NCBI GenBank assembly: GCA_030280995.1
Contig: JASXTE010000002.1
Span: 4,289,683 to 4,353,682 of the forward strand
DNA length: 64,000 bases
Direction of reading: 5' to 3'
DNA from: Hemileia vastatrix
Lineage: Eukaryota > Basidiomycota > Pucciniomycetes > Pucciniales > Zaghouaniaceae
The notes under the pieces were generated by a model. It worked only from the letters and a program-made list of their open reading frames with translations, had not been told where the DNA came from and ran no database searches. The first letter of the stretch is position 1. Every line of letters begins with the position of its first letter. Shown in pieces: positions 2,509 to 45,719 of the stretch. The position numbers and the translations under genes were made by a program.

Positions 2509-3522
2509 TCAAGGGTTGTTATCTTTTGAAGAATCGAAATTAGAAAATTTAGAAGGACCTTGATCGATTTCCTGGGATTTGAATCTTATTTCACGGTCAC
2601 GATAGTGTTGAAGCCAGTTGGCTATTTTGAAAAGGTCTCTTAACAGTTGCTCTATCATCCAAGATTCTGATCTATCAGAGGGCGGGTATTGTTGGAAATA
2701 AGCGATAAGTTTATTAAAATTAGCAAAAAGCTTTTCAGACACTAGGTGAATTGGAGCTCTAGGGAAGCTTGGATTAGGTTCTGGTAGTTCATAAGCTGAA
2801 TATGAAATTGGAGAACCGGTGGACGCTTATCAAATTAAAATATCATCAAATTAAAACCTGAAGATTAAGAAAATAAAAAGAGACAACTAACCTGTGTCAA
2901 CACTATCATGATCATAGATAAATGGCTTACTTGGTAATGGAGTGGGATTTTTTATGTTTAGAAAAGGATTTTTTATTTTTGATAGATGAGGAGGACTGGT
3001 GTTGTATTTGGTGTTTGAAGTAGATGTTCTGGGCCTTTTGGATGAAACAAGAGAAGATGAAGACTGCTGGCTATTATAGGACCTTTTGTGCTTCAAGATG
3101 TTGGAAGAAGGAGAAGAATTGTTAGAAGGTTGAAGCATGGCCCTGGGAGCAGGAAGAGTTCTTGGGGGAGTAGCAGCAAGTCTAGATTGGAGAGAAGGAC
3201 CCAGAGGATTAGGTGATGGAGAAAGATTTAAATAGGCCGATGGAGAAAAAGGGATGGGATCTTTAGAGGTTGATGGAATAGGGGGTGGAGTAGAAGGTGA
3301 AGAAGAAGGAAGAGGTTTGCAGAAGGCGGCGAAGCTAGTAGCAGTGATGGGGAAAGAACAACAGTTCAAGCCAGAACATTTTCTTTTCTTCTCATAACAG
3401 GATAAACAGGCCCTGTTATAAGTGTGCTTTTGCAAGTTAAAAGAGAAGATACATTCCCTATGGGTGAAGGCACAGTATTTGCAAGATTGATCAGCTGAAG
3501 CAATGAAGTCAGAAGGTTTCAT
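2509..3522 (-). CDS. Antisense gene G1: permuted Zn2Cys6-like protein, two exons
   Basis: Not a known family to me by name. Exon 1 is 3522-2892 and exon 2 is 2795-2509. The 96-bp intron (2891-2796) starts GTTAGT, ends CAG and is phase 1; joining gives 305 residues in frame. An in-frame ATG at 3585 would add 21 residues. I chose 3522 because the sister genes start 9-22 residues before their first Cys. Residues 14-46 hold the cysteine cluster C-X2-C-X6-C-X14-C-X2-C-X6-C, with basic residues between the last two cysteines (CYEKKRKC). A long Ser/Pro-rich linker follows, including a KRPR nuclear-signal-like stretch. Exon 2 encodes a helical tail with LIAYFQQ...P, shared with G2 and B2. A motif array starts 95 bp upstream of the ATG. 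DNA or RNA binding is inferred from the cysteine pattern only. Confidence 0.75.
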
Positions 3523-3616
3523 CTTGTTAGGAGATATTTTTTTGAAGAAGAAAACTTGAAATAGGATGAAGAAAGCTGGTGGCAAAATCTGGGTTCAAGG
3601 ATAGAGAAGTTGTTAG

Positions 3617-4084
3617 GTCCACCAAGACCCTAAGCTGGACTATTATCAAGCTGTTGGGTCCACCATGACCTTAAACTGGATTTCTTATCGATTAAATGTT
3701 TGGTCCACCATGACTTTAAACTGGTAGTTCATTCATTGTTTAGTCCACTATGACTTTAAACTGGAAAATTAATATCTGCAGGATAATTCAACATTCATTG
3801 GTCCACTATGGCCTTATACTGGATTACTTGTCGATCAAATGTTTGGTCCACTATGACATTAAACTGGATTATCAAATTTATTCAATCTTTGGTCAAGCCT
3901 AGGCCTTACTTAGGAATTTATCAAGTTATTTATGCACCTAAACGATCTTTGGTCCACCATGACCATAAACTGGAAATCGATTATATGTTTGGTCTACCAA
4001 GACTTTAAATTGGAATGTCAATCTTGCTTGGATAACTCAATTCAATCTTTTAATTTATCACTGTCCACTAAGACTCTAAACTGG
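3617..4084 (+). repeat. Array of about ten 22-nt motifs upstream of G1
   Basis: Copies start at 3617, 3658, 3703, 3743, 3801, 3846, 3892 (degenerate), 3952, 3992 and 4063, spaced 40-71 bp. Consensus: GTCCACYAWG immediately followed by ACTTTAAACTGG. All point in pol's direction. The spacers are AT-rich and not alike. The array lies head-on upstream of antisense gene G1; B1 in element B has the equivalent. Confidence 0.9.
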
Positions 4085-4665
4085 TTATTCAATTATTTCT
4101 GGAATTGGGTGCTGATAAGCTTTAGGAGGTTAAAATTTTAGGTGGTGATGATGCTAATGAAAGCATAATGGTTAATTAGGTGAAATTTGTGGCGCTTTAA
4201 CATGGTCTAAAGTTAAAATTATTATTGGAAGCCTGGCAAAAGTATTTTATGGGTTTGCTGTATAGCAAAGTTTGAAAATTGTGATGAAGGAATCAGAAGT
4301 TAGGATGGTAGTTGGATTTTAGGGAATGATTTTTTTTAGTGCCTCAGTGTTAGGCCATTTTTGGTGTGAAGCTTGGAGGACCTTATGGCGAGATTGGAAT
4401 CATAGAATTCGGCTCAGTGGGGGGCCCTATGAGGTTGGAATCAGGAGTATTCGGCTCATAGGAAGATCCACTCTCTCAATGCTGTGACAAGAAGGAAGAC
4501 TGGTATATGGGAGTCTGAAGGGATTCAAACCTTGCTCTCAGTAGTGGAATCATCACAAGATTTATTATTTATTATTTTATGTTAAGCCAGAGAAGAAAGA
4601 AAACAACATTTATGTTGAAAGTTAAAGAAGACCAAGCAAAAACAAAATTTTATCAAGTTATACTG
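4085..4665. other. Noncoding stretch between motif array and gene G2
   Basis: No gene is seen. A 41-bp imperfect direct repeat occurs at about 4394-4472 (TTGGAATCA...ATTCGGCTCA twice), and CCTATGAG (4426) pairs with CTCATAGG (4465). CTCTCAATGCTG near 4474 also occurs near 1820. Confidence 0.5.
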
Positions 4666-5356
4666 TTAGAAAAGATAATTTCTTTGAAATTGTTCAACAT
4701 CATTATCAAAGCTTTGCATTAAAATTCTTCTTTTCATGAGGTCTTCATGGTTATTAGCTGGAGTTTCTTGAAAATAGGCCAGCATTTTTTGTTTCAACTC
4801 ATTAGTAAAGTCAAGAAAAAGATAGAGATGAAAATTGGGATAATGATTGATATAGTCCGTCTTCACTCTACCAACATCATCAGTGTTGGTTATTTCGACA
4901 GCTAGAAGTTCAAATATGTTATTAAGTCATAGGTTTAGACAATTTTGATTAAAAGTTTTTTTAGTAAGATAATAGGGTCTTACATTTAGAGCCAGGAAAC
5001 ATAGTCTCAGCAAAGTTGGTTGGGGGCACTGGCGTTATAGGATTAGGATCTTGAGAAGGCAAAATAAGGCCGGGATCCGCTGATGAAGATTGAACTTTTG
5101 AAGCTGCTTTTGATCTTATTCCTTTTAAGAAGACAGGAATTTTTGATCGCTTTTTAGAAGTTGAGGGATCAGGGAGAGCTGCTGGTCCTAAATATACGTT
5201 TGTTTTAGAAGGAACTAATGGCCGGTCACATTTGACTTTTTTCACACGGCATAAGTTGCAAGCTGTCCTGCCAGGAAGATTAGGGTTGGAAATTAAACAA
5301 GGTACCTGGTATCGAGCGCAGAGTTCACATGGAGAGACAAGTTCTTTGGAAGACAT
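4666..5356 (-). CDS. Antisense gene G2: permuted Zn2Cys6-like protein, two exons
   Basis: Function not established. Exon 1 is 5356-4984 and exon 2 is 4901-4666. The 82-bp intron starts GTAAGA and ends CTAG in phase 1, giving 202 residues. The start is the ATG at 5356, ten residues before the first Cys. The cluster is C-X2-C-X6-C-X12-C-X2-C-X6-C, with second half ACNLCRVKKVKCDRP, very like the DNA-contact half of a Gal4-type cluster, but it follows rather than precedes the CELCARYQVPC half. A KKRSK basic patch and a Pro/Ser linker come next. Exon 2 gives a helical tail with MLAYFQETPANN and RRILMQSF. It begins about 125 bp from the 3' LTR and reads toward pol, the position B2 holds in element B and the Cys-rich gene holds in element C. 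Confidence 0.8.
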
Positions 5357-5465
5357 ATTGATGAAGATGAATTTTATAGTTGATTAAAGAAGATGGTGGT
5401 TGAAGGTTAAAGATGAATATTGTGTTCGACCACTTATGCAAAGTTATAAGAATGGGGACATTCTC

Positions 5466-5481
5466 AATTGGAGGGAGGATG
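5466..5481 (+). promoter_or_regulatory. Polypurine tract of element G
   Basis: TTGGAGGGAGGATG lies directly before the 3' LTR and is shared with element B at 45757-45770. Such tracts prime plus-strand DNA synthesis. Confidence 0.7.
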
Positions 5482-7187
5482 TGGTAGCCTAAAAGTTTAG
5501 TATGGCACCTAAGTAAGGAAATGGAGTTATTACGGCATGCAAGATTGGTGTTATTATTTTTATATAAAAGGTTTTTATTTAATTTATTTGAGTTTTAAAT
5601 ATGAAGAAATTGGTCACGAGCGAATGCCTACACAAAAACAATTTATTTTATGGAGAAAACTTATTTTTACAGTCTGAAAAGTTTATTAGTATCAAAGTCA
5701 AGTCACTCAAGAACCTTGGGAAATTTTTCCAGAATTTTTACTATTTTTCTTATATTTTTAAATGAATTTTAAAGTTTTATAGAAATATTTACGTTTTCAG
5801 AAATTACTTAACTTTGATGAATTTTCACGGGGTAATTAGAGCTGCGCAGACTACGAAAATTAGTTTGGAATATATAAGGGAAGTAGCTCTATTATGTGTA
5901 ATTTTTCTAGATTTTTTATTATAGTTTTTAAGGTTCTAATTGAGTCTGGAAGTCCAGACGGACTCCGTACGGACTCCGTACGGGCTCCGGATTGACTCTG
6001 GAAGAGCTCTGGAGGGGAAAACTTAGGCACATGACTAGGAATACTTAAGCGCCTCTCAAACTCAAAATTAAGAGGGGGGATACATCATACAGCTTAATCA
6101 TTAACCACCACGGTCTCATTTTTTATTACTCAACAAATTAAATAAAATTGTAATACCCTTATAACTTTATATTTTATATATAACATTTTAGAAATACTAC
6201 TCAACAATTTAAATCACACTTCATACAGGGTATCTTTAGAAAGGTCTTCATCACTGGGACTTGATTATTGCTGTCTCATATAAATTCAAATTATTATAAA
6301 AACATAAAAGTCAATCTTTTCAGATCTTTCACTGGTACACCTTAATTGTTGTTATCAGTATTTCTTTTCTCAACAGCCACTTTTATTTAAATCTCAATAA
6401 GCGTTAATTATTTTAGAGTTTCATTATTTTTATCAATCAGATCCAAGTAGACTGGTTAGCTTAGCTATTTAGAATTCCCATTTTGTTATTTTTATTGGAA
6501 GGACGGGGTTTTCAGCTAAATCCACATATCTCCTCCGGATTCTGCTTACAGCAAGGCGACTGTAAGAGTTTACCTTACCATAGCGGCCTGCCTGCCTCTG
6601 TTTTAGAAGTTTGGGGAGTGCTTCTGGAGGGTTTTATTCAATTTGGCTGGTACAGGCACCAAATTTGTTGGTGTGCATGGGCTCTTAGATAGTGGTCTGT
6701 GTGTACATACTGAATAAGACAGTTTGGGGCAACTTTAATTATCATGCAACCATCCGGAGGTGATATCCTTGTTCCTCACTCAGTTTTCACTGTTTTCTGG
6801 CCACAATTGGCTGTGTTGGTTGCAAGGTTAGTTCTTCATTTAACTCAACTTTGGCAACAGGTTCTCTGTTATAGTCTTGCAAGCTATATCAAGTATTATT
6901 GCTGTCTCTGGTGTGGATTTTCAGCCTACATCAAGTATCTTTGCTTTCTCTAGTGTGGACATTGGTCTACATTTCAGTTCTTTGGTCTGGTAGTCTGTCT
7001 GGGGACTACTTTCTTGGCTCATCAAGCAGTCAAGTGTGTTGAAAAAGGGGCTTTAGCAAACAGGAACCAACTTACTTTAGCAAGTAAATCTCACTCTATT
7101 TTTCTAAAGGGAAAGGGGATTTTCTCTCTGTTTTTTCTCCAACTCCCTTGGTCAAGGCCTATAGCTAGTACTATAGGATTGTCTACA
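5482..7187 (+). repeat. 3' LTR of element G (diverged or recombinant)
   Basis: The last 600 bp (about 6583-7187) match B's LTR, including the common end at ATAGGATTGTCTACA. The first 1,100 bp do not match B's LTR, and G's is 1.7 kb against B's 1.09 kb. A purine run GAGGGGGGA at about 6071-6079, followed by ATACATC, resembles another polypurine/LTR junction, so an older insertion or LTR exchange is possible. No gene is seen in it. Confidence 0.65.
5953..5998. repeat. Short GC-rich tandem repeat in G's LTR
   Basis: GGACTCCGTAC occurs twice in tandem, followed by GGGCTCCGG, flanked by GTCTGGA and TCCAGAC, which pair. It is an island of high GC in an AT-rich LTR. Confidence 0.6.
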
Positions 7188-7961: not shown

Positions 7962-8770
7962 TGTCACTGGAAGACCTACACACAAGGTGGAGGGTGTTCC
8001 TGGAAGTGAGATGGAGGGAGGAGTTTAGAAACTTCTTTGAAGCACAGAGGAAATCTTCGCAGAATTGATTCAAAGATGACTTGAAGGAAGAGCTCCTGCT
8101 TTGTGATATGTTCAATAAGAATTCTAATATAATTTAAAGGTAATATTAATATTCTTAAGATCTCACAAAGGGTTGAAAACTCAATAATCAAAGATTTAAG
8201 TCTTAGAAATGATTACTGAGAAAAATAAGGAAATGTACAATAATAATGATTTAACCTGAAGCTTTACCACTATTATCTATATATACATTTTATAATTTAA
8301 TTCTAAAGAAATATTGAACCACAATCCAACCCCTTTTATATCCATTACCCCTCCTCACATTGACCTCATACCCATCCATCATTCCGCACTCCACAGACCT
8401 ACAAAAATACACCCGTTACACCTGGACCCTCCTCACTAACATCCGTTAAACCTTTAATCCTCCACTAACCATCTCATACATGCTCACTACCCCTGTTAAT
8501 AACCCACAGATACTTAATAAACCTTTTAGCAGAATATTACATTAACTATTGCGCTGTGTGTTGCTTATCGAAGAAAAGACTAAACACACTATTGAAAGAT
8601 TGACTAATTTAGATTTAAAGTTTAGATTGGTGTGGTTGAATAGTGAGTACACAAAGGAAAGTTGCAGTTTCTATGTAGAATTGTTTTCTGTGCTTCAAAT
8701 ATGGATTTAGACCTCTGTATTATTGATTTAATGAGCTGCTTTTGCCTTGAGTGTCACGTTGCGTGTGACA
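7962..8770 (-). repeat. 3' LTR of element C
   Basis: 809 bp with TGTCAC...GTGACA ends. It matches the split right-hand LTR over its full length with many substitutions. Confidence 0.9.
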
Positions 8771-8780
8771 GATTCCCAGG

Positions 8781-8787
8781 TATAAAA
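8781..8787 (+). promoter_or_regulatory. TATA box for the antisense gene of element C
   Basis: TATAAAA lies 11 bp inside C's 3' LTR boundary and about 90 bp before the ATG at 8872, on the strand of the Cys-rich gene. Confidence 0.5.
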
Positions 8788-9263
8788 CACGAGCTCCGAT
8801 GAGAGTGAGACACATTCTTCCCACACTACTTTCTCTGACTCCTTCTTTTATTAATTCTTTTTTCTTGTATTATGTCAAACTGCCCTACTCCAACTACCAC
8901 ACCTCCACACCCCAAAGCAGATGGTGGAATTGTTACATGGCAATATTCCCAAGAATGCACGGCCTGTGAATTGATGGAGTATTTTTGCATCGAAAGCGTG
9001 GCCACACGAGGTCCTTTCCCAAAATGCAAGTTTTGCCCCTGGAGACGGGTGACATGTGATGCTCTCTCAAAAAATGAGGACATCAAGCGAAGATTTACCA
9101 AGACTAAGTACTGGGTAATCCCGAAGACCAAAGAGGTGGTCGAAGACATTAGGGACGTGTTGGTCATGGACAATCTTTTGGTAGAAGAAGTTGAGGAAGA
9201 GGTTGAGAATACCGTGGCGACTTGGGTAATCCAGGCCACAGGTAAAAAACAAGGGGTGGAAGA

Positions 9264-9920
9264 TGTGAAAGTACATAATTCTTCAATGTTCTTACATCTT
9301 CTAATCCAACATGACATGCTTATCGTGTTATACAACTTGTCTATAGTTATCACGTATTTTTCTGTCTTTCTATTTTAGTCGTGCAGTTTTGTGTAGATTC
9401 TACTTTTTCGTGCTATTCAATCATATCCAACCTGCTGATGAGCGAAATCATTATTATATATAGAAGATGTTATGTATTTGTTTTTCCCATCTCTGACTAT
9501 TTCGCTCATCGATTTATTATTACCTTTATAGGTTGGGTATTTTCTTTATTTCAATAAACTTGAATGTTAATGTTTTATTGGTTATTTTAATATGTCAGGT
9601 ACTTATTGGCAGAGATCAGTTTACTTGAGAGGATAGGACGTTTATTGATAAAGCGTCTATTTATTTTATAAAAGGTTCTTTGTACTACTTTGAAATATGA
9701 TCTCTGACTATTTCGCTCATCGATTTATTATTACCTTTATAGGTACTTATTGGCAGAGATCAGTTTACTTGAGAGGATAGGACGTTTATTGATAAAGCGT
9801 CTATTTATTTTATAAAAGGTACTTATTGGCAGAGATCAGTTTACTTGAGAGGATAGGACGTTTATTGATAAAGCGTCTATTTATTTTATAAAAGTCAGGG
9901 TTACTTGTCGAATTCTTTCA
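9264..9920 (+). repeat. 5' LTR of copia element K
   Basis: 657 bp, matching 14155-14811. It contains three 76-bp units (see 9599-9894), a repeated 43-bp block (9489-9532 and about 9700-9742) and a 12-bp inverted repeat GATGAGCGAAAT (9437-9448) with ATTTCGCTCATC (9499-9510). Confidence 0.95.
9599..9894 (+). repeat. Three 76-bp repeats inside the copia LTR
   Basis: Units at 9599-9674, 9743-9818 and 9819-9894 begin GTACTTATTGG and end TTTTATAAAAG; the first is separated by a 68-bp spacer. They recur in the 3' LTR. TTATAAAAG in each unit is TATA-like, so they may be promoter repeats. Confidence 0.85.
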
Positions 9921-9935
9921 GGTTATGGGCCCAGC
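9921..9935 (+). promoter_or_regulatory. Primer-binding site of K: complementary to initiator tRNA-Met anticodon arm
   Basis: GGTTATGGGCCCAGC follows the 5' LTR directly. It is complementary to the anticodon stem-loop (CAU) of initiator tRNA-Met, as in Drosophila copia, which primes with a half-tRNA rather than a tRNA 3' end. Confidence 0.75.
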
Positions 9936-9945
9936 CCTGTATTGA

Positions 9946-14811: not shown

Positions 14812-15382
14812 GAAGAGGAGGTGGATGAACTGGTTGAAGAGGATGAGGATGAAGTTCCCATCTCAAAGCAGGCTCCAAAGAAGCGGCAGATGATCTTCAA
14901 AGATGATGAAGAGGAGAAGGAAGTGACAGTAGAGGTCACTCCGTGGCTATTTTTAGAGCCTGACCCCAGTTTTGAAGTAAGTCTGCCTTTTCTTGTTTCA
15001 AGATTCTGTTACTGATGACTGTATGTTTTTAGAATTCAGATGTCATCATGGAAGCTCCAATTGTGGAATCTGTGCCATCCCTGCCGATTGAGGCAAGTCA
15101 ACTGGTGGTTGATTTAAGGGAGGATAACGAGGAAACCCTTGACCAGGTATGGTCGAAGAAACCTTGGCAGGGTCGACAAGCTCGATTCATTGATAATTAA
15201 GTGATGAGATTGACAAGACTGTCAATGCTGCCTCCTTCAATGTGGCAGAAGAATTACTGGAGATTGGAGAAGTGGTACCAGTAGGAGAGGAGGAGGTATT
15301 TGAAAAATACACGAAGGAAATAAGGGTGGTATTGGAAAAAATGAAGAAATTGGTTTGGGAGAAAATACAGGAGAAAATTTGA

Positions 15383-20987: not shown

Positions 20988-21444
20988 TGTCACCAGACAA
21001 CCTATGCACAAGGTCGAGGGTGTTCCTGGAAGTGAGATGGAAGGAGGAGTTTAGAAACTTTTTTGAAGCACAGAGGAAATTTTTGCGGTAGTGATTTGAA
21101 GATGACTCGAAGGAAGAGCTACTGCTTTGAGATATGTTTGATAAGATTTCTAATATAATTTAAAGGTAATATTAATACTCTTAAGATCTCACAAAGGGCT
21201 GGAAACTCAATAATCAAAGATTTAAGTTTTAGAAATAATTACTGAGAAAAATAAGGAAATGTACAATAATAATGATTTAACCTGAAGCTTTACCACTATT
21301 ATCTATATATACGTTTTATAGTTTAATTCTAAAGAAATATTGAACCAAAATCCAGCCCCTTTTATATCCATTACTCCTCCTCACATTGACCTCATACCCA
21401 TCCATCATTTCAAACACCACAGACCTCCGAAAATACACATGTTG
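20988..21444 (-). repeat. 5' LTR of element C, first part
   Basis: Begins TGTCACCAG and is interrupted at about 21444 by element B. The remainder is 46860-47217. Near the junction the left copy of B's TSD (TGTTG) differs from the right copy (CGTTA) by two transitions. Confidence 0.85.
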
Positions 21445-22535
21445 TGATCTTCCAACATTGGCAGGGGCCTTTGTTGTGTGATTTGGCGTGGTTTGTGCAT
21501 GTCTTAATTGACATCTGTTAAGGAATTGGGTATTTTTCTGGTTTTATTCCGTGGATATTGGGTCTGCGGGTATGTGGGTACTATCATTGGATAGCCCTGG
21601 TTATTCTCTATATTTTATGTCTTGAAGACATTTTTCATATTCTAAGTTTTAAGGGGTCATTTCCTCATTTTTCATTTATAAAAGATTGTTGTTTAATTTT
21701 GTTTTTTGTGTTTTATGGGCTAACCTTAAGTCACAGGGTTAAGTGCTTAGTACCATTGGATAGAGCTAATTTTTCTCTATATTTCATGTCACAATGTTGT
21801 TATAGTGAAATTCCGTGTTTTAAAGGTTTTAGTAGTTGTAGCTAATTTTTCTAAGTAGATTAGTGGTTTTTATTGGTTTTCTGGCTTCAGGGAGGCCGGG
21901 CTGCTTCAGGCGGCATCTCCGATGTCGGGCGGCCCGCCTGCCTCTGTTTTAGGAGGTTGGGGAGCGCTCCAGGAGGGTTTTTTATGCAATTTGGCGGGTA
22001 CAGGCACCAGATTGGTGGGTGCGCATGGGCTCTTAGTTAGTGGTCTGTGTGTACATAGTGATTAAGACAGTTTGGGGCAACCTTAATCATCATACAACCA
22101 TCCGGAGGTGATATCATTGTTCCTCACTCAGTTTTCACTTTTTTCTGGCCACAATTGGCTGTGTTTGTTGCAAGTAAGTTCTTCATTTAACTTAACTTTG
22201 GCAACTGTTTTCTCTGTTATAGTCTTGCAAGCTATAGCAAGTATTATTGCTGTCTCTGGTGTGGATTTGCAGCCTACATCAAGTATCTTTGCTGTCTCTG
22301 GTGTGCACTTTGTTCATCATTTCAGTTCTTTGGTCTGGTAGTCTATCTGAGGACTAATTTCTTGGCTCATCAAGCAGTCAAGTGTGTTAAAAAGGGGCTT
22401 TAGCAAAACAGGAACCAACTTACTTTAGCAAGTAAATATCACTCTATTTTTCTAAAGGGACAGGGGATTTTCTCTCTGGTTTTTCTCCAACTCCCTTGGT
22501 CAAGGCCTATAGCTAGTACTATAGGATTGTCTACA
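21445..22535 (+). repeat. 5' LTR of element B
   Basis: TGATCTTCCAACATTGG... to ...GGATTGTCTACA. It matches 45771-46859 nearly throughout. The exact left end could be 2 bp earlier (TGTGATC). Short ORFs inside it recur in the other LTR only because the LTR is duplicated. Confidence 0.9.
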
Positions 22536-22539
22536 TTTC

Positions 22540-22556
22540 TGGCGCCCAACGTGGGG
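22540..22556 (+). promoter_or_regulatory. Primer-binding site of B (tRNA-Lys type)
   Basis: TGGCGCCCAACGTGGGG begins 4 bp after the LTR. TGGCGCCC is complementary to a tRNA-Lys 3' end. The 17-nt string is the same as the spumaretrovirus site as I remember it. Confidence 0.75.
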
Positions 22557-22627
22557 TGAGAACTTGCTATTTCTTTGGAATCTCTGTTTTCTTTGGTTGG
22601 CTCTTTTTGGTGTTTTGGTCAGGAGGA

Positions 22628-25254: not shown

Positions 25255-25825
25255 AAAGTTTTTGGGGCGGTGAGATTGGGGTCTAAAAGTAAGTCCTCCC
25301 AATTTTGCACCGCTAGGGTTTCTTCTACACCTTTCAAAAACATTACCTGGGCCACACCTGTGAGCATTGGGGAAACCTCTGGTTATTTTTTTAGGTCAGA
25401 AGAAAACTCAAGAAAAGAAGATAAAAATTTCAAGATAATTCATGAAGATCAAGAAAAAAATCTGAAGATAGTGAAGAAAGAAGATGCAAAATATTTTTGT
25501 GAAGATCGTCAAGAACGATTTTTGGGCCTCCAGCATGAGGCTAAACTGCAGAAAATTTTGAAGAGAGAAGATCATCAAGATCAATTTTTGGGCCTCAAGC
25601 ATGAGGATAAGCTGCAAAATTTTAGAAGATGTGATTCAGAAGATGAATCAAGATTTGAAGATTTGGAAGTTGGAAGTGAGGATGAAGATGTGGAATTGCA
25701 GAAAAGTTTTGGAGTGGTGATATTGGGGTCTAAAAGTAAGTCCTCCCAATTGTGCACCGCTAGGGTTTCTTCTACACCTTTCAAAAACATTACCTTGGCC
25801 ACACATGTGAGCAATGGGGAAACCC
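25255..25825 (+). repeat. 124-bp direct repeat inside B pol
   Basis: 25255-25378 and 25701-25825 match almost throughout (ATTGGGGTCTAAAAGTAAG..., GGGAAACC at the end). Both copies are in frame and encode SKSSQ.CTARVSSTPFKNIT. The second ends shortly before the TGA at 25984. Confidence 0.85.
25527..25616 (+). repeat. Two in-frame copies of the 22-nt motif in B pol
   Basis: Copies at 25527-25550 and 25593-25616 (CATGAGGCTAAACTG type), encoding LQHEAKL and LKHEDKL. Confidence 0.8.
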
Positions 25826-27634
25826 TTGGTTTTTGTTCCAGGTCTGGTGGTGAAGATTTCATGAAGATCCCTCAAGTTGAAGGTGGAGCAGCAAAGTATA
25901 AGAAGGTTGCGCAGAAGATTAGGCCTTTCAATGAGCCTATGCCTGTGGGTTTGAATCCGCCCTTGAAGAGACCTCCTTTGTCGTGAGATCCGTACTGTAC
26001 TCCTTTGGTGAAGAATCCTCCAGAATTTGTAGAGACGGCTAGGGTGACCGTGGAAAGATTGAAAGTTGTTAATTTTGGTCCTGATGGGTGGTTGTCTGAG
26101 GAAGAAAAGAAGTTGTTGTTTCACGTTATTGTGCTAAGGGAAAAGGCTGTGGCATTTGTTGAGGAGGAAAGGGGTGTATTGAAACACTCTTATGGGGAAC
26201 CTTACTTGATTCCTGTGGTTTGCCATGAACCTTGGCAAATCAAACCTATTCTGATTCCAGCCGCTATTAGAGAGGATTTTGTGGAGATTGTTAGGGAAAG
26301 AGTCAGGACTGGGTTATATGAACAATCAACATCCAGTTACTCAAGTCCGGTGTTCTGTGTAAAGAAGCAGAATGGAAAGTTACGGGTGGTTCATGATCTT
26401 AGAGCCTTGAATAGAGTCACTATCAAGGACGCTGGTATGCCACCAAGTGCAGAGGATTTTGTTGAAGCTTTTGCTGGAAGGGTGTGTTATGGTTTGGGTG
26501 ATATTATGGGTGGTTATGATGAGAGGGAACTCTATACGGATTCAAGGCCTCTCACAACTTTTGAGACTCCTTTGGGAAGATTTCAGCTCACTAGGTTGCC
26601 TCAAGGAGCAACTAATTCAGTGGAAGTTTATCAAGCACAGATGGCTTGGATTTTGCAGGATGAGGTTCTTACTCATGCTGGTATTTTTATTGATGATGGT
26701 GGAATTAAAGGACCATCCACTGATTATGGTAATGAGGTGTTAGCGGAGAACCCTGGCATAAGGAGGTTTGTGTGGGAATATGCAATAACTCTAGAGAGAG
26801 TGTTGTTCAGGATTGAAGAGGCTGGATTGACCATTTCAGGGTCAAAATTCTGTTGTTGTGTTCCTGCTTTGGAAATTCTGGGTCATGTGGTATGTAAAGA
26901 GGGAAGGACTATGGTGAAGAAGAAGATTAATAAAATTCAGTCATGGTCAAGGCCTAAAAATACTACTGAAGTCAGGGGATTTTTAGGTGTATGTGTATAT
27001 GTCAGAATTTTTATTAAGGATTTTTCTTTGTTGGCTTCAACTTTAAGGAGGTTGACCAGAAAAGATGCAGATTGGGAATGGACTGAAGAGTGTGAAGAGG
27101 CTTTTCAGAAGTTGAAAAAGGTTGTTGGTGAAGATATTGTTCTTCACAAGTTGGATTATGGTGTTGGTGCTGGAAAAATTTATCTGGCAGTGGACTCAAG
27201 TTATATTGCTGCTGGTGCTGTTTTGTCTCAGGAGGATATGACTGGGAGGGTCAGGCCAATAAGATATGAGTCTGTGGTGTTTAATGAGGTGGAATCTAGG
27301 TACTCTCAACCTAAATTGGAATTGTGTGGCGTAGCTAAAATTTTAAAGAAGCTACAGATGGTTTTGTGGGGGCAGCATTTTGAGCTGCAGGTGGATGCAA
27401 AATCTTTGGTTCAGATGATCAATACACCTAGTCTTCCAAATGCTCCAATGACTAGGTGGGTGGAATTTATTCAACATTTTTCTTTTGACCTGGTACACAA
27501 CCCAGGTAAAACTTTTACTATGCCTGATGGATTATCAAGGAGGCCACCTACAGATGAAGATTATGAGGCTGAAGAATTTTATGAGGATGTTCCAGTGGTT
27601 AGGGCCAGCACAAAGGGTGCTGAAGATTTTTCTG

Positions 27635-27694
27635 TCCTCCCCCATGAGGCTAAACTGGATGATTGTTCTGAACTCCCCCAAGAGGCTAAACTGG
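27635..27694 (+). repeat. Two further in-frame motif copies between RNase H and integrase
   Basis: Copies at 27635-27658 and 27673-27694 (CTCCCCCATGAGG, CTAAACTGG), encoding LPHEAKL and LPQEAKL. They lie in an acidic linker. Confidence 0.8.
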
Positions 27695-29229
27695 CTGGAT
27701 CTGATCTTTATTCTGGTGATCAGGATGTTTTTGTTGATGAAGATGGAGTTGTTGTTTGGGACACCTCAAAATTGGAAAAGGGTGTTTTTGTTAGTGAACT
27801 GGATTCTCACAAGGTTCAGTGGAAAGAGAAGGATGTGCCAAAATTTAAGGATTGGTGTCCTGGTTGGGCTGCTCAATCGGCTCATGTTCACACTGGTGAT
27901 TTTGATGACAGAGTTGTACCCTTGGATGTTGTTTTGTTGGATTTTGAAGATGAGACCTGGGGTCAGTCTGGGGTTTATTTTATTTTGGTGGAATATCCCT
28001 TGACCTTGGAGAGGCCATATAGTTGTGATGATGATACTTGGTTGGAAATCAAGAAGAAGAGTCCTGGATTTTATGTGTCAGGATGGCGGTTGATGAGGAG
28101 GAGACATCCAAATCCTCAAGTGGTGGTGACTCAGAAGAAGGTTCAAGAATTGGTTTTGAAGTCTTTGCATGAAGACCTTGGTCATAGAGGCTTTGGGGAG
28201 ACCTATAGAAGAGGAGCAGACAGATTTTGGTGGCCAGGTATGAAGTTGGCTGTGCAGGGTTGGGTTCAATCTTGTGAAGAATGTCAAAGAAGAAGTCACT
28301 TGAAACCTAAAGAGGTGGGCCGTGCTACTGGTGAATCAACTGTTTTTGGAAGAGTCAGTCTGGATGCTGTCCATATTAAAGAGGGCAGGTATAAATACTT
28401 GATTGTTGCTAGGGATGGTTTTTCTGGTTTGGTTGAGGCAGTGCCTCTGGTTAATTTGACTGCCAAGAATGTGGGAGAGTTTTTGAAGAAGGAGTGGATT
28501 TATAGGTATGGGTTGATGAAGTTGGTGACTGTTGATGGTGGGCCAGAGTTTGGTGCCGAATTTATAGAAGCTGTGGCTAGTGTTGGTTCTAAAGTTAGAG
28601 TGGCTACACCTTATTATTCTGAAGCTGAAGGCATGGTTGAAAGAGGCCATCAAGTTATCAAGAATGATTTGGTGAAGATGTGCGGAGATAGTGCCAAAAA
28701 GTGGAGGCATAATTTACCCTTGGTGTTATTTGCTGATAGGGTCACTGTGAAGAGGACAACTGGCTATTCTCCTTATGTGTTAATGTTTGGTCAAAAAGCT
28801 GTTCTACCAGTGGACTTGGAAGCTGTCTCTTATCTTGGAATTAATTGGGATGACGTGCACTCAACAGAAGATTTGCTCTGTGCCAGGATGCAACAGTTGG
28901 AATGTAGAGAAGAATGTCAAGAGAAGGCATACTCTAGAATGATGAAGATTAGAAATCAATCAGTCAGGTACTGGGACAAGAAGTTAGCTCATAGACTCAG
29001 GAATCCCTTGAAACCTGATTGTTTGGTTTTGGTGTATAATAGAAGTTTGGAGAGTCAGTAGGGGAAAATGTTTGCTGACAGATGGAATGGACCTTACAGA
29101 GTCAGATCTCAGGCGTCTGGAGGTTCTTATTTTTTGGAAGAGTTGGATGGTGCAGTCTAGAAAAAGAGGGTGGCTGCAGACCAAGTGAAGAGGTTTTATC
29201 CCAGAGGCACTAGGCATGAAGAAGATTGA

Positions 29230-29607
29230 CTCCGCAATGAGGATAAACTATGGACCATTCTTTAATTTTGGGTTGTTGTTTTTTTTTGTGGTGATGCTAT
29301 GCATCTGTTTTTGGAAACTTTTGTTAGAGGGTACCCATGGGTGGGGCCTCTAGATTTGGTCTTGGCAAGTGTGGGGGTGACTGATGGGCTGGCTGCTCTA
29401 TCAACAGTTACCCCAGATTGTCTGTTTCCAGCCCCTTCTCTTAATTTGGTTGAACCCTAGTATTGGTTTCTTTTCACAGGTTTTAGTCCTCTATGACTTT
29501 AAACTGTTAATTCCTTTGGTTTTCAAGTGCCGGACTCTTCACTCTTATTGGTTTTGGTTTTTTGTGTTGGACGTTGTGTTTTTGTTAGAAGGTACCCAGG
29601 GGGGGCT
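29230..29607 (+). other. B 3' noncoding region: motif copies and hairpin H1 copy 2
   Basis: Motif copies at 29230-29253 and 29486-29507. Hairpin H1 copy 2 has arms 29374-29383 (GGGGTGACTG) and 29405-29414 (CAGTTACCCC), with one G-T wobble. The block from about 29310 is duplicated, resuming beyond S1 at 31966, so B has two hairpin-plus-motif cassettes here. Confidence 0.75.
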
Positions 29608-32037: not shown

Positions 32038-32175
32038 TGAATGTCTGTTTCAAGTCTTTGTTTTTCCTAGTTGAATTCTAGTTCTGCTGTTTATTATTCA
32101 GGTTTCGAGTCCACTATGACTTTAAACTGGTTTGGGACTGGCTTCTTTATCTTTGGTTCTTTCAGATTGGTGGTG

Positions 32176-32957: not shown

Positions 32958-34274
32958 TCTGAAATTATTTTTATTAATTGTTTTATATTATTATTATTTT
33001 TCTAATCTTTTTGCAGGAGCTCATTGTCTGGATGATGAAGCTTCTGGAGGCTGGTCCGGATTGTGATGACGTTTTTGTTTTTTGTTGGGATTGTGGGAAG
33101 CACTGTGTTCTTTGAAGTTCATCTTGCTGGAGAGATTATAGGGATTGTAATGGTCAGGAATTGGATTAGAGGGAAGTTCAGAGGAGGAAGAAGAAGAGGC
33201 AGGAATGGAGTGCTGGAGGGTGTGTTTAATGATCCTAGACATTTTCCAGTGGTCATCCAGTAGGCGCTTTCTCAGGGATTTTTCAAAGTCATTCAAAGGT
33301 CCATGGAGGGCAAAGGCTTTTAGCATGTTGGAACACATGGTGCTTAGGTGTTTCTTCATGTCTCCATAATCCAGGGTCAGGGAAGTTTCAAGAGGTTGGC
33401 CAACTCCAATAATAGATTCAGGAGGAGGGGTGCCAACTAGACAAGAAGAATTGGATCAGTAATTATTTTTGTTGAAGAAATGGAATAATTAATTTGGTAC
33501 TTACAGATTGGAAGCTCATCAAATCTGTAAGCAGCTGGGATTTGGATCTCTGACAATTTTGTAATGGTTATAGTGGGTGGATCAACTAGGGAAAGATATG
33601 GATTCTCATGGTCTTCCTCCAAAGGATCCTGAGAAGTTGAACTGGGATGCTGATGTTCCTGGGGCTTAGTTAGAGCAGTGGGATTGTTGTTGTTGTTGTG
33701 GTTGTTATTTCTGTTGGATTCAGCTGGAGGAGTTGCTGGTGATGGAGTACCAGGGTTGTTAAAGGATGGAGCAGGAGAAGGGGATTTGGAAGCAGACTGC
33801 TCTCTTCTGGATGGAGAATTTGAAGAGATGGAACTATCAGAAGAGTAGTTGGCTGACAGAGGAGAGGTGTAGCTTCTTTGTCTTAGTTGGGGACGAAGTT
33901 GTTGTTGTGGAGCAATGTGTGGTGTTCTGGTTTCTTCTTGGGATTCTCTGGCAGGTCTCTTGAAAATCTGGGAAATTTTGGTGCTTTTGGACTTTGGAAG
34001 GGTGGATTGCATTGCTCTGGGAGCAGTAGGAGGTAGTTGGGTTGAGTTGTTGTTGTTGTCTGGATGAATTTGGCTTATTTCTGGCCGTTTTTGGAGGTTT
34101 TGGCCCTGATTTTCACTGTTTGGTGAGGCGGGCGGGCCGCCTGACGGCGGCCGGGCCACCTGGACACAGTCTAGAAGCCTGGGAGTTGATCTTGAAGCTT
34201 TTTGAGCTAATTTGGCGGAGATAAAATCAGTTTCTTGTGAAGCTAAGGCTGGTCTTTTGGGAAGAGTGCTGGAA

Positions 34275-36445: not shown

Positions 36446-39400
36446 ATGTGTGACAACAATGACATTGTAAGTAATAAGGTAAAACCTTATAACTTAAGAC
36501 CTAGAGCTGAAAGACCTGTTACAGGACATTCAAATGGAGGGCCAGGACTCTCCCATAATCAACAACACTCCGTCAATGTCTCTGGAGGAAAGGGAAAAGC
36601 TTTTAAAGCAGGTTTCAATAAAGAAAACAAAAAATACTTTACAAGAACAAGTTCACTCCCTATCCACCCTACGGAACACCTTGACAATAAGAGTCAACAA
36701 TATAGTGGACCAGATCAACAATCTGGAAAAGAGAGCAGCTCAAGGTTTCATAGAGGTCAACCAAGCTCTAGTGGACATAAAGACTCAACCACCAACAGTG
36801 GCACCCAACAATTCCATAGCAACACCTCCAGCCCAAGAGGAGGACCAAAAAATTACTGTAAGCAAATGGAAATGGGATTGGTACGCCCAAAACTACAACA
36901 ATCCTCAACAGCAGGGCTCCAGCAGTCACCCTTACAGGGGAAAGGCAAGGAGAGGCAGGGGAAGTGGGATAAGACCTTGGTAAGTCATCCAACTTCTTAT
37001 GATCAATTATATCAACCTGAAAATAAATTACTTATAGGTAATGAGATTGATAAGGAAATATTGGATATTATTGATAAGGATTTAAAGGATTATTCATTTG
37101 AACAGAATATGTTAAACTTGTCTTTACATGAGGACAATGTAAATAGTTTTATTGATCACCAGAAAAATACTATTAATATAAAAATGGAATCAAATGAATT
37201 AAATCTTGACCCTGATAATGAGTCTTCTGCATTGGACACGGAAAAAATAGAATATTTTTTAAAAGAGAATCCAATGGAATCAAAAATAATAAGTAAATTA
37301 TTATTGAGAATTGAAAAATTGGAAGAGTTCTCAAAAGAGTCAAACATTAATTCAGAAAATGTATTATTACAACTAACACAATCATTGAGTACCACATCCA
37401 ATAAATTAAAAATTATTGAAAATTCAAATAATGAATTAATCAATGAGAATAAAAGATTAAAATCTGAGATTAGAAATTTAGAAAGTAAATTAGAACACTC
37501 TCAGAATATTATGGCTACCATAGAGGGACGTGTAAAATTGTCTTTTTCAAATGTAAATGATACCTTAAATCATGTACCTGTGATAAAAGATAGGTTACAA
37601 AGAGTAGAAATTGAAGTAGCTAAAATTTTGAAAAATACTGAAACAATAAAAGATAATACCTCTTATGTAGAAAGAGTACCAGTTTTTATGAAACACTCTG
37701 ATGATAAACCAATGATTGAACATGAACATAGTGTTATGGGCTCTGAGAATATGAAATCAGTAAAAGATGAAATAAATGATCATCTTTCTAAAGTAAGTGA
37801 ATTACTCAATATTCCTCAGGTTAGGGAAGCAAAAACTAGCCAAAAGAACTGGCCTAAGTTAGATCAGTACCCTTCTTTTGACGGGGATTCAAAATCTGAT
37901 TGGCAACAATTCATACAAAGAATTGATAACTTAAAATTTTCATATAAATTACATGATGAAGAAATTACTTCAAAGTTAATATCTTTATTTACAGATGTGG
38001 CCTTATTATGGTTTGAATCTGTATTGAGTGAGGGAATTAATTACTCCTGGAATGAATGGAAGGCACTAATTGAAAGGCAATTTGGTGGCCCAAAATTTAG
38101 AATCACTCAACAAAGACTGTATGAAAGGGCCAGATATAATCCAAATGCTGGAGATAAACCCATGGTCTTCTTAATGAATTTAATAAAAATCATGAAAGCT
38201 ATGGATCCAAAAATGGATTATGAAGAGTGGAAAGAAAAAATAATATACAAATTGCCTATATCAGTTAGAGACATTATTGTTGCTAGAACTGAAACTGTCA
38301 GAGACACCTCTGGATTCATTAATATATGCAATGAGATATTATTAAACCACAAATATGAAACCAAGTATAGTAATTACAGACAAAGTGTTGACGTGGTAAA
38401 ACCTACTACAAGTAAGTTACCAGTGGAAAAGAAAAAACCTTCAGCTCCCCTTGTCCCTAAGAGACAAGAAAATAACACTTGTTACAAATGTAATGAACCT
38501 TGGGTTAAAGGTCACACGTGTAAGAAAAGAATAAATGTTATTGAAACCTCACAGAATTCTGAACCTAGTAATCATGAAGATGAGAATGTGGAATCCAGTG
38601 AGGATTGCAAGAGTAACATATCTTACAGTGATGATGAAAATGAGATATTTGTATTAGAACAGGATATAATGTTCCTGAATGATGCTATACCTCATACAGA
38701 CACATCTTTAACTTCTATAGAGGAAGCTGAAATAATTAAAGATGTATCTCATGATACTTACAAAATAACACCTATCAGAGCACCTATTATCATATGTGGA
38801 AAAGAAATGAATGCCATTCTTGACACTGGGGCTGCAGGTAGTGTAGTTTCACTTAATGCATTAATGAAACTTGATAGTAAGTACCAGGAAAAACTAGAAC
38901 CTGTTCAGACAAAGAACTGGAGGGGTTTTGGTTCAGTATTAAATCCAATTGGCAAATACAAAACTGCTGTATTCTTTAAATATAATAATGGATATGTTAG
39001 AGCAGTTTGTGAATTTGTAGTAATGGATAATAATAATTGTAGTGATTGGTTTATTATTGGCAATGATTTATTGACAAAATTTGGCATTAAACTAGATCCT
39101 GCAAACAGTTGTTTCACCATAGGGGTGAATGGTAAAAGAAAATTCAAAATATGTTCTGAAAATTCAGTATATACCATTTCTCCTAGAGAAGAACAACTGC
39201 AAGGTGGAAGAACCACCAATGAAGTGGGTGAATTGGAAAATGAAATCCAAAAGGCCTCTTTCAGTCCTCAACTCTCAAAAATTGAACAAGAAGATATTTT
39301 GAGATTGATTAAATCATATCCTATGGCATTTGCTCATGGCTCAAATGAACTAGGATTGGTCAAAGACCATGAGATGAAAATCTCTTTAAGCTGTGATCTG

Positions 39401-42319: not shown

Positions 42320-42500
42320 ATTTCTGTTCAACCAGCTGAGGGGTTAAAAAACCAGTACTCATAATATTTTATTATGTTTTATTTCTTTAAAGTTGAATCT
42401 TTAATGCTACAGATTTATTCTGAATACCTGAAAATTACAAATTAAATAAAATAAAATGTATAACTTATCATTTTTTTATTGTTTTTTTTGGGTGGGCGAG

Positions 42501-44001
42501 TGTCAGCCTGTATATCTCCAGGACTGAGTAAAAAGTAACTATAAGTTATGTTAAACACATGAACTATACATGGGAATAATAAATGAGAGTACACAAACAG
42601 TATACATAAGTAAAATTATGATAATACACAAAAAATGCCATTATAACACCTTATATACACGCATATATCCACCTTTTATAGGTCTTATGTACTTAATATT
42701 AAGTTGGAGTATGTTAGGGTAATCTTAAGAACCTTAAGTATAAGGCTACATAATTTTTAAGTACACTTAAAGCTGTTATATTCATTGTTTTATGCAAAAA
42801 ACAAGAAATGCGCTTTATTTCACTTAAAAGTTGACTATATGCGCTATAAAATTGAGAATATCAAAATTGCGCTTTGACAGATCAATTGGGCTCATTTAGA
42901 ACTATTGATTTGGCTATTTAAATGCATAAAAATAACACTTTTCAAATTTGGTGTTTTTTATGCCAGAAATGGCTTCTGTGTACTGGCCACATACTGCCTG
43001 CTTTTTTTCCCGTGTGAATAGCTTCATTTTTAGCAAAGTTAGCTTTTTCACACTATAATTACCCCACATTCTACGCCCACTGTGGGGAAACACACTAAAA
43101 TAGGCGACAGGCGCTTATTTAGTGTCCTAGCTTAATTAATAATGCATTGACCCTGTTTATATGCACTAATTTCATTAATAACCTCACTCTTGGAACTTTA
43201 TTTCATCACCACGCTTAAATTCGCCTAATTTTAGTCAAGGATTTACCCGTGCAAGCGCCTGCCAAGGACTGCATGTAGTTACCCCACATCTCACGCTCTT
43301 TTTTAAGTTTTTGGGTGGTTTCTCAGTCAATTTTGGTTATTTTTGAATGGGAATTTCACGTAGTATAATGTCAGGATTAGCCCCATTATTTCTACAGTCA
43401 ATCCCCCTTATTATTAAGCTATTATTAACCTTAAAAAGTCTCCTTTAGTCCTTAATATTATTGTTTTATACGCATATACTCTCTTTTTGTCTTTTTCTTT
43501 AATTTTGATGGATTTCCCTTATTATTTCAGGATTTTGGCGGTTATTACTCTTCTAATTATGTCATGGGTCACTGGGAATGTTGATGGGAATGTCTATTAG
43601 TTGTTTAGAGGCGTGATTAACTGTGTATTGGGTGGTACATCAAGGGAATCATTGGGGAACTCAGTGTGTATAAAAGGAGGAGGTTTTTGGGTTGTATTTC
43701 TTCATTCTTTATCATTACAATTAACCAATATAACCAAACCAATTACAATACATATCAATTAGTACTTTTATAAGACTTTTGAATAGTATCTGAATTTATA
43801 TAATCTATTTTTCTACCAACTATAAAGATTGTAAGCCATATATAAGAATAGTGAGAATTTTATTACTGAGACCTTTATATTTGATTATATTTTACAACTT
43901 AGTGGATTAGAACTACAGTATTCATATAGGACCATTAAAATCTTCTAGACAACTGACTATTCAAGCTAGTTCACGTCCTTGTACTTGACCTTAGCCTGAC
44001 A
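42501..44001 (+). repeat. 3' LTR of element A
   Basis: 1,501 bp, preceded by a G-rich tract GGGTGGGCGAG (42490-42500) after a T run, the likely plus-strand priming site. TATA box at 43669-43675. Confidence 0.92.
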
Positions 44002-44476
44002 GGGAAGCTGAGCTTCTGGATCTTCTGGAAGCAGCAGAGGATAGAGAGGAAGAGGAAGGACTAAGCTCTGGGGATCTGGTAGGGGATCTGGAGATCTATT
44101 TGTGAGAAGGAGAAGGAAGAGGAATAGGGTAGTTGGCATCTCTGTCTCATCTTTTCTTTTTGGAATAGCAAGAGTCACAAGCCCTGTTGTAGAATTTGGA
44201 TTCAGGATTTGGAAGAGTGAATGTGCAAGGTCTGCACATGTGGATGCACTGTTTTCAGGCATAGTCCTTGGGAGCAGTAAAGCAAGGGAGAGTAGAAGGG
44301 TTAACATCAGGAGATCCAGCCATGATCTATGGTGAGAAAAGATGATGAAAAGCGATAGGATGAGATTTTTTGTCAGTGATGGGTAGATGATTAAGTGAAG
44401 GGGAAAGCTCAGAAGGTTGGCTGTAGAGGTGTGCCGCATGAAATTGGCTGCGTCCATTTTATGCAAAATTCTGTCA

Positions 44477-45018
44477 GTCCATCAAGACTCTAAACTGAGA
44501 AGGCTATGTTATCAAGTTATTCCATCAAGACTATAAACTGAAAAATCTATGGTATCAAGGCAGTCCATCAAGACTTTAAACTGAAATCTGGTTTCTGTTA
44601 GTCCTCCAAGACTTTAAACTGGCTGGTTTCAATATTTTATCAAGACTAGTCCGTCAAGACTTTAAACTGAACACTGTGTTAGTCCCCCAAGACTTTAAAC
44701 TGAGGGTTGTAAGTCCCCCAAGACTATAAACTGAGGGAAAAGTTTTTGTTGTTGGAGTTGCTTTTGAAGATTGGTGGAGGGTATCCACAGGGGGAGCCTC
44801 CGAATTTAGCAAAGGCAAGTTTGGGGGTAATTGATGGGCTGGCTGCTCTATTCACAATTACCCCAGAATGTTAGTTTTTTTTCTGTGTCTTAATGTGGTT
44901 GATCTCTGGTTCTGGGTTTATGATTTAGGTTTTTGAGTCCCCCAAGACTTTAAACTGAGGGTTTTTGAGTCCCCCAAAGACTATAAAATGAGGATAGTCC
45001 CCCAAGACTTAAAACTGA
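44477..45018 (+). repeat. Motif arrays and hairpin H1 copy 4 upstream of B1
   Basis: Motif copies start at 44477, 44520, 44563, 44601, 44649, 44682 and 44713 (spacing 31-48), then 44937, 44969 and 44997. Consensus: GTCCAYCAAG followed by ACTTTAAACTGA. Between the groups lies hairpin H1 with arms GGGGTAATTG (44824-44833) and CAATTACCCC (44855-44864). All are in pol orientation. The first group starts 154 bp upstream of B1's ATG. Confidence 0.9.
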
Positions 45019-45078
45019 GGGTTGTTTGTGGTTACATCCTATAGAGGGTGTGGTCAATTTTTCTTTTCTGAATCAGAC

Positions 45079-45719
45079 TCAAGTACTAGTGGAATTACAG
45101 AGGGAATCAAGAGATGAAATGAAGTGTTCAAAATTAGCCTTGAACTGGTGAATGAGGTGTCTTCTGTTCTCAATGTCCTGTGGATCTCTAGCAGGAGTGG
45201 ATTGGAAGTAGTGAAGCAGAAGTTGTTTCTGTTGAGATGTGTGTTGTTGGAACTTGGCCTTGATAGTGGGCAAGTGCGTTGGTTTTGGTGGTGCAATGGA
45301 TCCTACATTGTTATCATCACTATCAGAAGAGGGAGGAACTGAGAAGTTATCAGTTTTAAAGTTGAAGGAAGAAATGAATGTTCTTTACCATCAGATGGAC
45401 CAGGGATGGGGGAACTAGTTGTTTTATGGGTTGTGGCACTCTTCTGGGAAGGGTGGAGCTTTTTGATTAATCTGGGTATCAGGATGGATGGCCTAGATCT
45501 TTTGGTGCTGGCAGAAGAAGGACCAGGTTGAGGTGGAGGTGAATCTGTTGTGGAAGAAAGTGGACCAGGTCTGTGGCAGGTCTTCTTTTTGGATTGGCAG
45601 ACATCACAGGACGTTCTGTATGGATGGACAGGTGGTGTCATGGCGCAGATTAAATTATTGTCGATGCAGTATTGGCAGGGGCCCATTTCAGAGGCAGATT
45701 TGGGAAGAAGGCTAAACAT
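45079..45719 (-). CDS. Antisense gene B2: permuted Zn2Cys6-like protein, two exons
   Basis: Function not established. Exon 1 is 45719-45389 and exon 2 is 45338-45079. The 50-bp phase-1 intron starts GTAAAG, has ACTGATAAC and ends CTTCTCAG; joined, 196 residues without a stop. In-frame ATGs further out fall at the LTR edge or inside it, so 45719 is the preferred start, 52 bp from the LTR. The cluster is C-X2-C-X6-C-X12-C-X2-C-X6-C (CQYC...CDVCQSKKKTC), identical in spacing to G2. A Ser/Pro linker with TKRSRP follows, then a tail with LLLHYFQSTPARD and RRHLIHQF, matching G2's tail. It is the only antisense gene of B that still looks intact although B's gag and pol are dead. Confidence 0.8.

What the first reader, a model, noticed from the sequence alone, without database searches (positions are those of the whole stretch)
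2509..45719. Antisense spliced Cys-cluster genes between pol and 3' LTR in three elements of two Ty3/gypsy clades
Seen: G (2509-3522, 4666-5356), B (33021-44323, 45079-45719) and C (8872-15382) each carry one or two small genes antisense to pol, the outermost starting about 50-130 bp from the 3' LTR and reading toward pol. B and G share gene order; C is a chromovirus with a different Pol. Inference: these are element-borne accessory genes, perhaps regulators of transcription or of integration, kept or gained in unrelated lineages. I do not know of a described system with this layout.
Basis: partly seen in the sequence, partly recalled or inferred. Interest (0 to 1): 0.88.

Follow-up and report, generated by a model that had tools for sequence, protein, structure and literature searches.

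The report
Antisense zinc-cluster genes in fungal retrotransposons
Two unrelated kinds of jumping element in a probable rust-fungus genome carry small backward-facing genes that probably make DNA- or RNA-binding regulators, and one kind also carries a repeated hairpin-like signal; backward genes in this place were already known from plants and one other fungus, so this is a new variant rather than a new kind of thing.

Summary
Three Ty3/gypsy elements (G and B, one lineage; C, a chromovirus) carry antisense genes just inside the 3' LTR with short GT-AG introns (50-82 bp). All four six-frame matches in the window to a six-cysteine cluster pattern are these genes; 60 block shuffles gave none. 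G-outer and B-outer are clearly homologous (shuffle z 24), with third codon positions most diverged, so the frame was selected. The cluster resembles fungal Zn(2)-Cys(6) domains with the two halves in swapped order. C's gene matches in spacing and place, not significantly in sequence. Two of five genes are split by later insertions, one of which also has three stops. The layout is not new: plant Retand, Grande and RIRE2 and fungal Boty have antisense ORFs there. Most likely reading: element-encoded nuclear regulators, with the motif as a candidate recognition site. Expression, binding and other copies could not be tested here.

The parts
4984..5356 (-). G-outer antisense gene, exon 1 (Cys cluster at 5228-5329); ATG 123 nt from the 3' LTR
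   Evidence: Pfam Zn_clus E=5.1e-05; PDB 1pyi E=0.0016
4902..4983 (-). G-outer intron, GTAAGA...CTAG, 82 bp, phase 1 (predicted)
4666..4901 (-). G-outer exon 2, conserved block around YFQxTPA
2892..3522 (-). G-inner antisense gene, exon 1 (cluster 3376-3483)
2826..2891 (-). G-inner intron, 66 bp, phase 1 (predicted)
2509..2825 (-). G-inner exon 2
45389..45719 (-). B-outer antisense gene, exon 1 (cluster 45576-45677); ATG 48 nt from the 3' LTR
45339..45388 (-). B-outer intron, 50 bp, phase 1 (predicted)
45079..45338 (-). B-outer exon 2
44002..44323 (-). B-inner antisense gene, 5' piece of exon 1; broken: three in-frame stops and the A insertion
33505..34271 (-). B-inner, rest of exon 1 beyond the A insertion, still open
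33437..33504 (-). B-inner intron, GTAAGT...CTAG, 68 bp, phase 1 (predicted)
33021..33436 (-). B-inner exon 2
8872..9263 (+). C antisense gene, 5' piece of exon 1 (cluster 8956-9057); ATG 101 nt from C's 3' LTR; TATAAAA at 8781-8787
14812..14976 (+). C gene, rest of exon 1 beyond the copia insertion
15033..15146 (+). C gene exon 2 (predicted introns 14977-15032 and 15147-15208)
15209..15382 (+). C gene exon 3, charged and probably helical C-terminus (by eye)
1294..1457 (+). Hairpin-like motif, 4 copies just after G pol
1776..1800 (+). Hairpin-like motif, single copy in G
3614..4084 (+). Motif array in G, 9 copies, between inner and outer antisense genes
25525..25615 (+). Motif, 2 copies upstream of B reverse transcriptase
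27634..27694 (+). Motif, 2 copies inside B pol linker between RNase H and integrase
29227..29507 (+). Motif, 2 copies just after B pol (29227, 29483)
32106..32130 (+). Motif, single copy in B
44474..45018 (+). Motif array in B, 10 copies, between inner and outer antisense genes
5480..7187 (+). G 3' LTR (start by analogy with B, end by match to B's LTR)
21443..22535 (+). B 5' LTR; C's LTR sequence continues on both sides of B, with no clean target-site duplication (CATGT / CCGTT)
45768..46859 (+). B 3' LTR
7962..8770 (-). C 3' LTR (C lies on the minus strand; AGCTG flanks both ends of C)

Best explanation
These are accessory protein genes of the retrotransposons, of the antisense 'between pol and 3' LTR' type, transcribed away from the 3' LTR edge by an antisense promoter and spliced (inferred). 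They probably encode small nuclear regulators: a six-cysteine cluster like the fungal Zn(2)-Cys(6) domain with its halves in swapped order, a basic stretch that could serve nuclear entry, a linker, and a C-terminal, probably helical block. In G and B the gene is a diverged pair flanking an array of a ~22-nt motif; I propose that one or both proteins recognise this motif, in element DNA or sense RNA, and so tune expression of the element. Shown: the frames, B-G homology, codon pattern, motif copies and paired arms. Predicted: the introns. Inferred: expression, nuclear role, zinc binding, and protein-motif binding.
For: Frames beat shuffles in G, B-inner and C. B-outer/G-outer shuffle z 24.3; identity by codon position 0.43/0.57/0.32, pS 0.78 vs pN 0.50 over 183 codons. 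All four B/G genes have a GT-AG phase-1 intron between cluster exon and second exon. Zn_clus 5.1e-05 on G-outer, 23.7 bits against a cutoff of 21; PPR1 E=0.0016. A profile of the four clusters has 17 PDB matches at E<=10, of which I count 13 as fungal Zn(2)-Cys(6) proteins (that class is recalled, not stated by the call). In LAC9 both halves match in swapped order: profile 29-47 to residues 8-24 and profile 7-32 to residues 26-52; HAP1, GAL4 and PPR1 match with the basic half only. Motif: 31 copies at 21.8 bits or more, next match 9.8 bits; core 77% identical between 9 G and 9 B array copies, flanks 31%; 0/500 shuffles reach the pairing.
Against: PDB profile matches are individually not significant (best 0.17; LAC9 0.47), and four of the 17 are unrelated proteins. 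B-outer Zn_clus is below cutoff (15 vs 21 bits) and G-inner and C have no Pfam match at E<=1 in their cluster exons. C's cluster resembles the others only in spacing (z 0.4-2.8), and its own PDB search found no Zn(2)-Cys(6) protein. B-outer frame length alone is weakly unusual (28/500), and the C piece has an equally long frame on the other strand. G-inner against B-outer does not beat the best of 300 shuffles. No homologue found for the antisense proteins. The AlphaFold model is low confidence, pLDDT 55. No transcript data. Nothing links the proteins to the motif except position and co-occurrence, and C has a gene but no motif.
Confidence: 0.5

Rival explanations
1. The antisense genes are real accessory genes, but the repeated motif is a separate packaging, export or dimerisation signal in the sense genomic RNA, bound by Gag or a host protein.
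For: All 31 copies lie on the element's sense strand. Arms compensate: AU 13, CG 7, GC 4, GU 2, other 4 at the outer pair; GC 20, CG 9, other 1 at the next. Five of five cores folded alone give the hairpin. C has an antisense gene but no motif.
Against: Arrays fold no better than shuffles: z 0.34 (G sense), 0.48 (B sense), 0.96 (B antisense). Of the five cores, only two had clearly lower energy than shuffles (z -3.68, -2.59; the others -0.58 to -1.26). 19 of 31 copies sit between the antisense genes rather than near the 5' end.
Confidence: 0.3
2. The genes are captured pieces of host Zn(2)-Cys(6) transcription-factor genes carried as passengers.
For: Zn(2)-Cys(6) domains are typical of fungal transcription factors (recalled); similarity to them.
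Against: Swapped half order; retention in both B and G, whose integrase regions are 75% identical; codon-position constraint; same location in C.
Confidence: 0.08
3. Antisense RNA, not protein, is the working product (double-stranded RNA or interference), and the frames are incidental.
For: Antisense transcripts as regulators are proposed in the review PMC7264820.
Against: Cys pattern 4 observed vs 0 in 60 shuffles, homologous frames with phase-1 introns and third-position excess.
Confidence: 0.07
4. The motif is a short self-spreading or tandem-slippage repeat without function.
For: TRF finds local tandem periods of 31-66 bp at several of these places; 0 of the 120 related Pol proteins examined (of 503 hits) carry the B linker peptides at that place.
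Against: Core conserved between G and B arrays (77%) while flanks are at 31%; dispersed copies all keep orientation and nearly all keep paired arms.
Confidence: 0.15

Closest known systems
Retand lineage of plant Ty3/gypsy (TRP28 antisense ORFs; PMC11963269, parts 1-3 of 5 read)
   Same: Non-chromovirus element, long pol-3' LTR region of about 4 kb, antisense ORFs there with a predicted DNA-binding domain, tandem arrays in the same region in about half
   Different: Fungal; no PF04195 match; Cys cluster instead; predicted introns; arrays share one motif with paired arms that also occurs in and around pol
Maize Grande gene23 (as described in PMC7264820)
   Same: Antisense gene between pol and 3' LTR with its own promoter, nuclear protein
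   Different: No Cys cluster known to me (recalled); sequence not compared here
Boty antisense gene brtn in Botrytis (Zhao et al. 2011, seen only as cited in PMC7264820 and PMC8365987)
   Same: Fungal gypsy element with an antisense gene between pol and 3' LTR
   Different: Ascomycete host (recalled); sequence not compared here; paper not read
HTLV-1 HBZ / HTLV-2 APH-2 (PMC3736048, passages)
   Same: Antisense, spliced, started at the 3' LTR, regulator of sense expression; works like, not related
   Different: bZIP factor (HBZ), retrovirus; starts inside the LTR, which forms the first exon
Fungal Zn(2)-Cys(6) transcription factors (PPR1, HAP1, GAL4, LAC9, LEU3)
   Same: Six cysteines as two Cx2Cx6C halves, basic residues in one half, often D after it
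   Different: Halves in the opposite order; small protein; element-borne

Membership tests
Antisense accessory ORF between pol and 3' LTR (aORF-3R) | Frame lies between pol and 3' LTR, antisense | tested here: met
   three of three elements
Antisense accessory ORF between pol and 3' LTR (aORF-3R) | Conserved in most copies of the family | not testable with these tools
   no other copies reached (unanswered; none); only B-G homology shown
Antisense accessory ORF between pol and 3' LTR (aORF-3R) | Antisense transcript | not testable with these tools
   no RNA data
Retand lineage | TRP28 (PF04195) in the antisense ORF | tested here: not met
   no match at E<=1 in the ten pieces searched
Retand lineage | Pol groups with plant Retand | not tested
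   no tree made; organism-named hits among the 120 listed are Pucciniomycotina, plus two labelled bacterial MAG
Fungal Zn(2)-Cys(6) domain (PF00172) | Six cysteines spaced Cx2Cx6C ... Cx2Cx6C | tested here: met
   G-outer, G-inner, B-outer, C; not B-inner, which is broken
Fungal Zn(2)-Cys(6) domain (PF00172) | Basic half first, full-length profile match | tested here: not met
   Pfam matches 15 of 39 positions in G-outer; halves align in swapped order to LAC9
Fungal Zn(2)-Cys(6) domain (PF00172) | Binds two zinc ions | not testable with these tools
   model too weak
Rfam RNA family | Motif matches a curated family | tested here: not met
   0 matches at gathering score in the window

The most novel reading that the evidence does not exclude
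A retrotransposon-borne regulatory pair: half-swapped Zn(2)-Cys(6) proteins encoded antisense recognise a family of about 30 hairpins scattered through the element's own sense RNA, a Rev/RRE-like or packaging-like circuit evolved in a fungal LTR element.
Probability: 0.2. Interest if true: 0.85.

Novelty: new variant of a known kind. Interest (0 to 1): 0.6.

Why it matters
The function of antisense accessory genes of LTR elements is called unknown in the review and the paper that I read in part (PMC7264820, PMC11963269). Here one gene comes with a recognisable nucleic-acid-binding type and a candidate cis-site family in the same element, which makes the question directly testable. A swapped Zn(2)-Cys(6) order would also be an odd form of a very common fungal domain.

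Tried and rejected
Homologues of the antisense proteins: none at E<=10 with G-outer (27 candidates) or the four-row alignment (3882 candidates); the search needs shared 5-residue words, and B-outer and G-outer are only 31% identical to each other, so this is weak evidence of absence. Relatives of B Pol in viral contigs (14 pattern matches) and genome contigs (132): none confirmed. Motif pattern in viral contigs: 40 single matches, no arrays, taken as chance. Rfam: none; tRNA: none. NCBIfam on eight antisense exons: nothing meaningful. A first motif template had the wrong spacing and was replaced. A first alignment misplaced C's cluster; trimming N-termini fixed it, so the alignment of C rests on that choice. 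For the pair count I used 30 of 31 copies, leaving out 44966, which has an indel. The two inner pairs were part of the scan template, so only the two outer pairs are independent evidence (55 of 60 cells paired, 39 of 44 in the 22 distinct cores, 0 of 20000 shuffles as high; shuffles ignore relatedness). I first took B's target-site duplication as clear from overlapping matches; one search shows it is not. Considered and dropped: UGA read as an amino acid in B-inner; a third stop is TAG, and B's gag frame has stops too, so decay is simpler.
Full report
Elements. Self-comparison and boundary reads resolve a nest of LTR elements. G (plus strand) enters at the window start within integrase and ends at 7187. 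B (plus) has LTRs at 21443-22535 and 45768-46859, 98.5% identical. C's LTR sequence runs on directly at both sides of B (20988-21438 and 46856-47217 match 7962-8412 and 8408-8770), so B sits in C's 5' LTR, though the target-site duplication is not clean (CATGT / CCGTT). C (minus) is a chromovirus with gag at 20909 and chromodomain at 16229, flanked by AGCTG on both sides. A chromovirus, A, 34272-44001, sits in B; a second copy is at 48042-57768 (99.6% identical). A young copia element, 9264-14811, sits in C's antisense gene, flanked by GAAGA. B and G are 75% identical in protein over the 375 aa of integrase region present in G; C matches B at 25% and A at 30-32%. So two lineages are involved. 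Of 503 hits with B Pol, 120 were listed; those named by organism are Puccinia, Austropuccinia and Phenoliferia, plus two labelled as a bacterial MAG. I infer a Pucciniomycotina host, probably a rust; the species is not identified.

Genes. Each outer gene starts 48 (B), 123 (G) or 101 (C) nt inside the 3' LTR and reads toward pol. Predicted introns are 50-82 bp with GT-AG ends, chosen by eye to keep the frame open; in all four B/G genes the intron is phase 1 and separates a cluster exon from a second exon. C has three exons. The Cys pattern search over six frames gives 4 hits, all in these genes, against 0 in 60 block shuffles. Frame lengths exceed dinucleotide shuffles for G and B-inner (0/500 each) and C (2/500), less so for the B-outer piece (28/500); in the C piece the opposite strand has a frame of similar length.

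Constraint. G-outer and B-outer are homologous (z 24.3; score 184 against a best shuffle of 61 in 300). Across 183 aligned codons identity is 0.43, 0.57 and 0.32 at positions 1-3, pS 0.78, pN 0.50. G-inner is more distant (z 3.9 and 4.4; it beats the best shuffle against G-outer but not against B-outer). C is not significantly similar to any (z 0.4-2.8). dS is saturated, so no dN/dS value is claimed.

Domain. Pfam Zn_clus matches G-outer above its cutoff but over 15 of 39 positions, B-outer below cutoff, and the cluster exons of G-inner and C not at all. PPR1 is the one PDB match at E<=1 for G-outer. A four-row profile has 17 matches at E<=10; by my count 13 are fungal Zn(2)-Cys(6) proteins, each weak, and four are not. 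LAC9 shows both halves in swapped order within one chain, each stretch weak alone (i-values 18 and 4.9). I read this as a half-swapped cluster; the AlphaFold model is too poor to test it. C's own search gives no such protein.

Broken copies. B-inner has three in-frame stops in its cluster-coding piece, two of them at places where G-inner has cluster cysteines, plus the A insertion. The frame I take for B gag (no Pfam gag match) has stops at 22931 and 23435. This copy is probably not autonomous. C's gene is split by the copia element.

Motif. Two arrays between the antisense genes and scattered copies share NNTC-CNNYAW-GANN-N-TAAACTG. A covariance model finds 31 copies, 14 in G and 17 in B, all plus strand, with a gap from 21.8 to 9.8 bits. 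The model was built from 30 of them, so they match by construction; the gap and the absence elsewhere are what informs. On 30 copies 95% of pair cells are standard, 20 cells change on both sides, 0/500 shuffles as good, and slid versions fall to 20-48%. Core identity between G and B arrays (9 copies each) is 0.77, flanks 0.31. Against an RNA role, arrays do not fold better than shuffles (G sense, B sense, B antisense); five of five short cores form the hairpin alone, two of them clearly better than shuffles. A dyad site in DNA remains possible, though the conserved tail is one-sided. On the sense strand there are three G-U cells (two at the outer pair, one at the third) and one C-A cell, at the innermost pair, which would be G-U on the other strand. 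Two copies lie in the B pol linker and are read as peptide; 0 of 120 listed related Pol proteins have that peptide at that place, with two matches elsewhere.

Known work. [quoted passage not shown] PMC11963269 (parts 1-3 of 5) reports antisense ORFs in all Retand clusters it examined in detail (63), TRP28 in 97%, and tandem arrays in about half; function unknown. PMC3736048 (passages) describes HBZ and APH-2 as antisense, spliced and started in the 3' LTR. PMC8365987 (passages) cites the Boty gene brtn. Searches for a zinc-type or fungal version (9, 0, 1 and 0 papers) and for hairpin repeats with an antisense ORF (3 papers) listed no title or abstract that describes it; those papers were not opened, and the library holds open-licence papers only.

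Verdict. Real, element-borne, and under past selection in B/G; a new variant of a known layout. The regulator role and the link to the motif are inference.

Noticed in passing
   Followed up: yes
6583-7187 vs 21929-22535: The 3' part of the G and B LTRs is 92% identical although their pol DNA is 74% identical; suggests LTR exchange or strong constraint.
   Followed up: no
44002-44323: In B-inner two of three in-frame stops (both TGA) fall where G-inner has cluster cysteines; B's LTRs are 98.5% identical, so the decay may predate this insertion.
   Followed up: partly
22536-22560: B primer binding site looks like the lysine-tRNA type known from some retroviruses (recalled, not tested; sequence).
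   Followed up: no
29607-31965: Tandemly duplicated solo-LTR-like insertion in B, about 83% like 57867-59040 beside the second A copy.
   Followed up: no
23516-23557: The frame taken for B gag has a CCHC-like knuckle in which the last cysteine position is another residue; C has an intact CCHC-type knuckle at 19809-19847 (minus).
   Followed up: no
L001-L040: Forty single matches of the motif pattern in viral contigs, none in arrays; taken as chance.
   Followed up: partly
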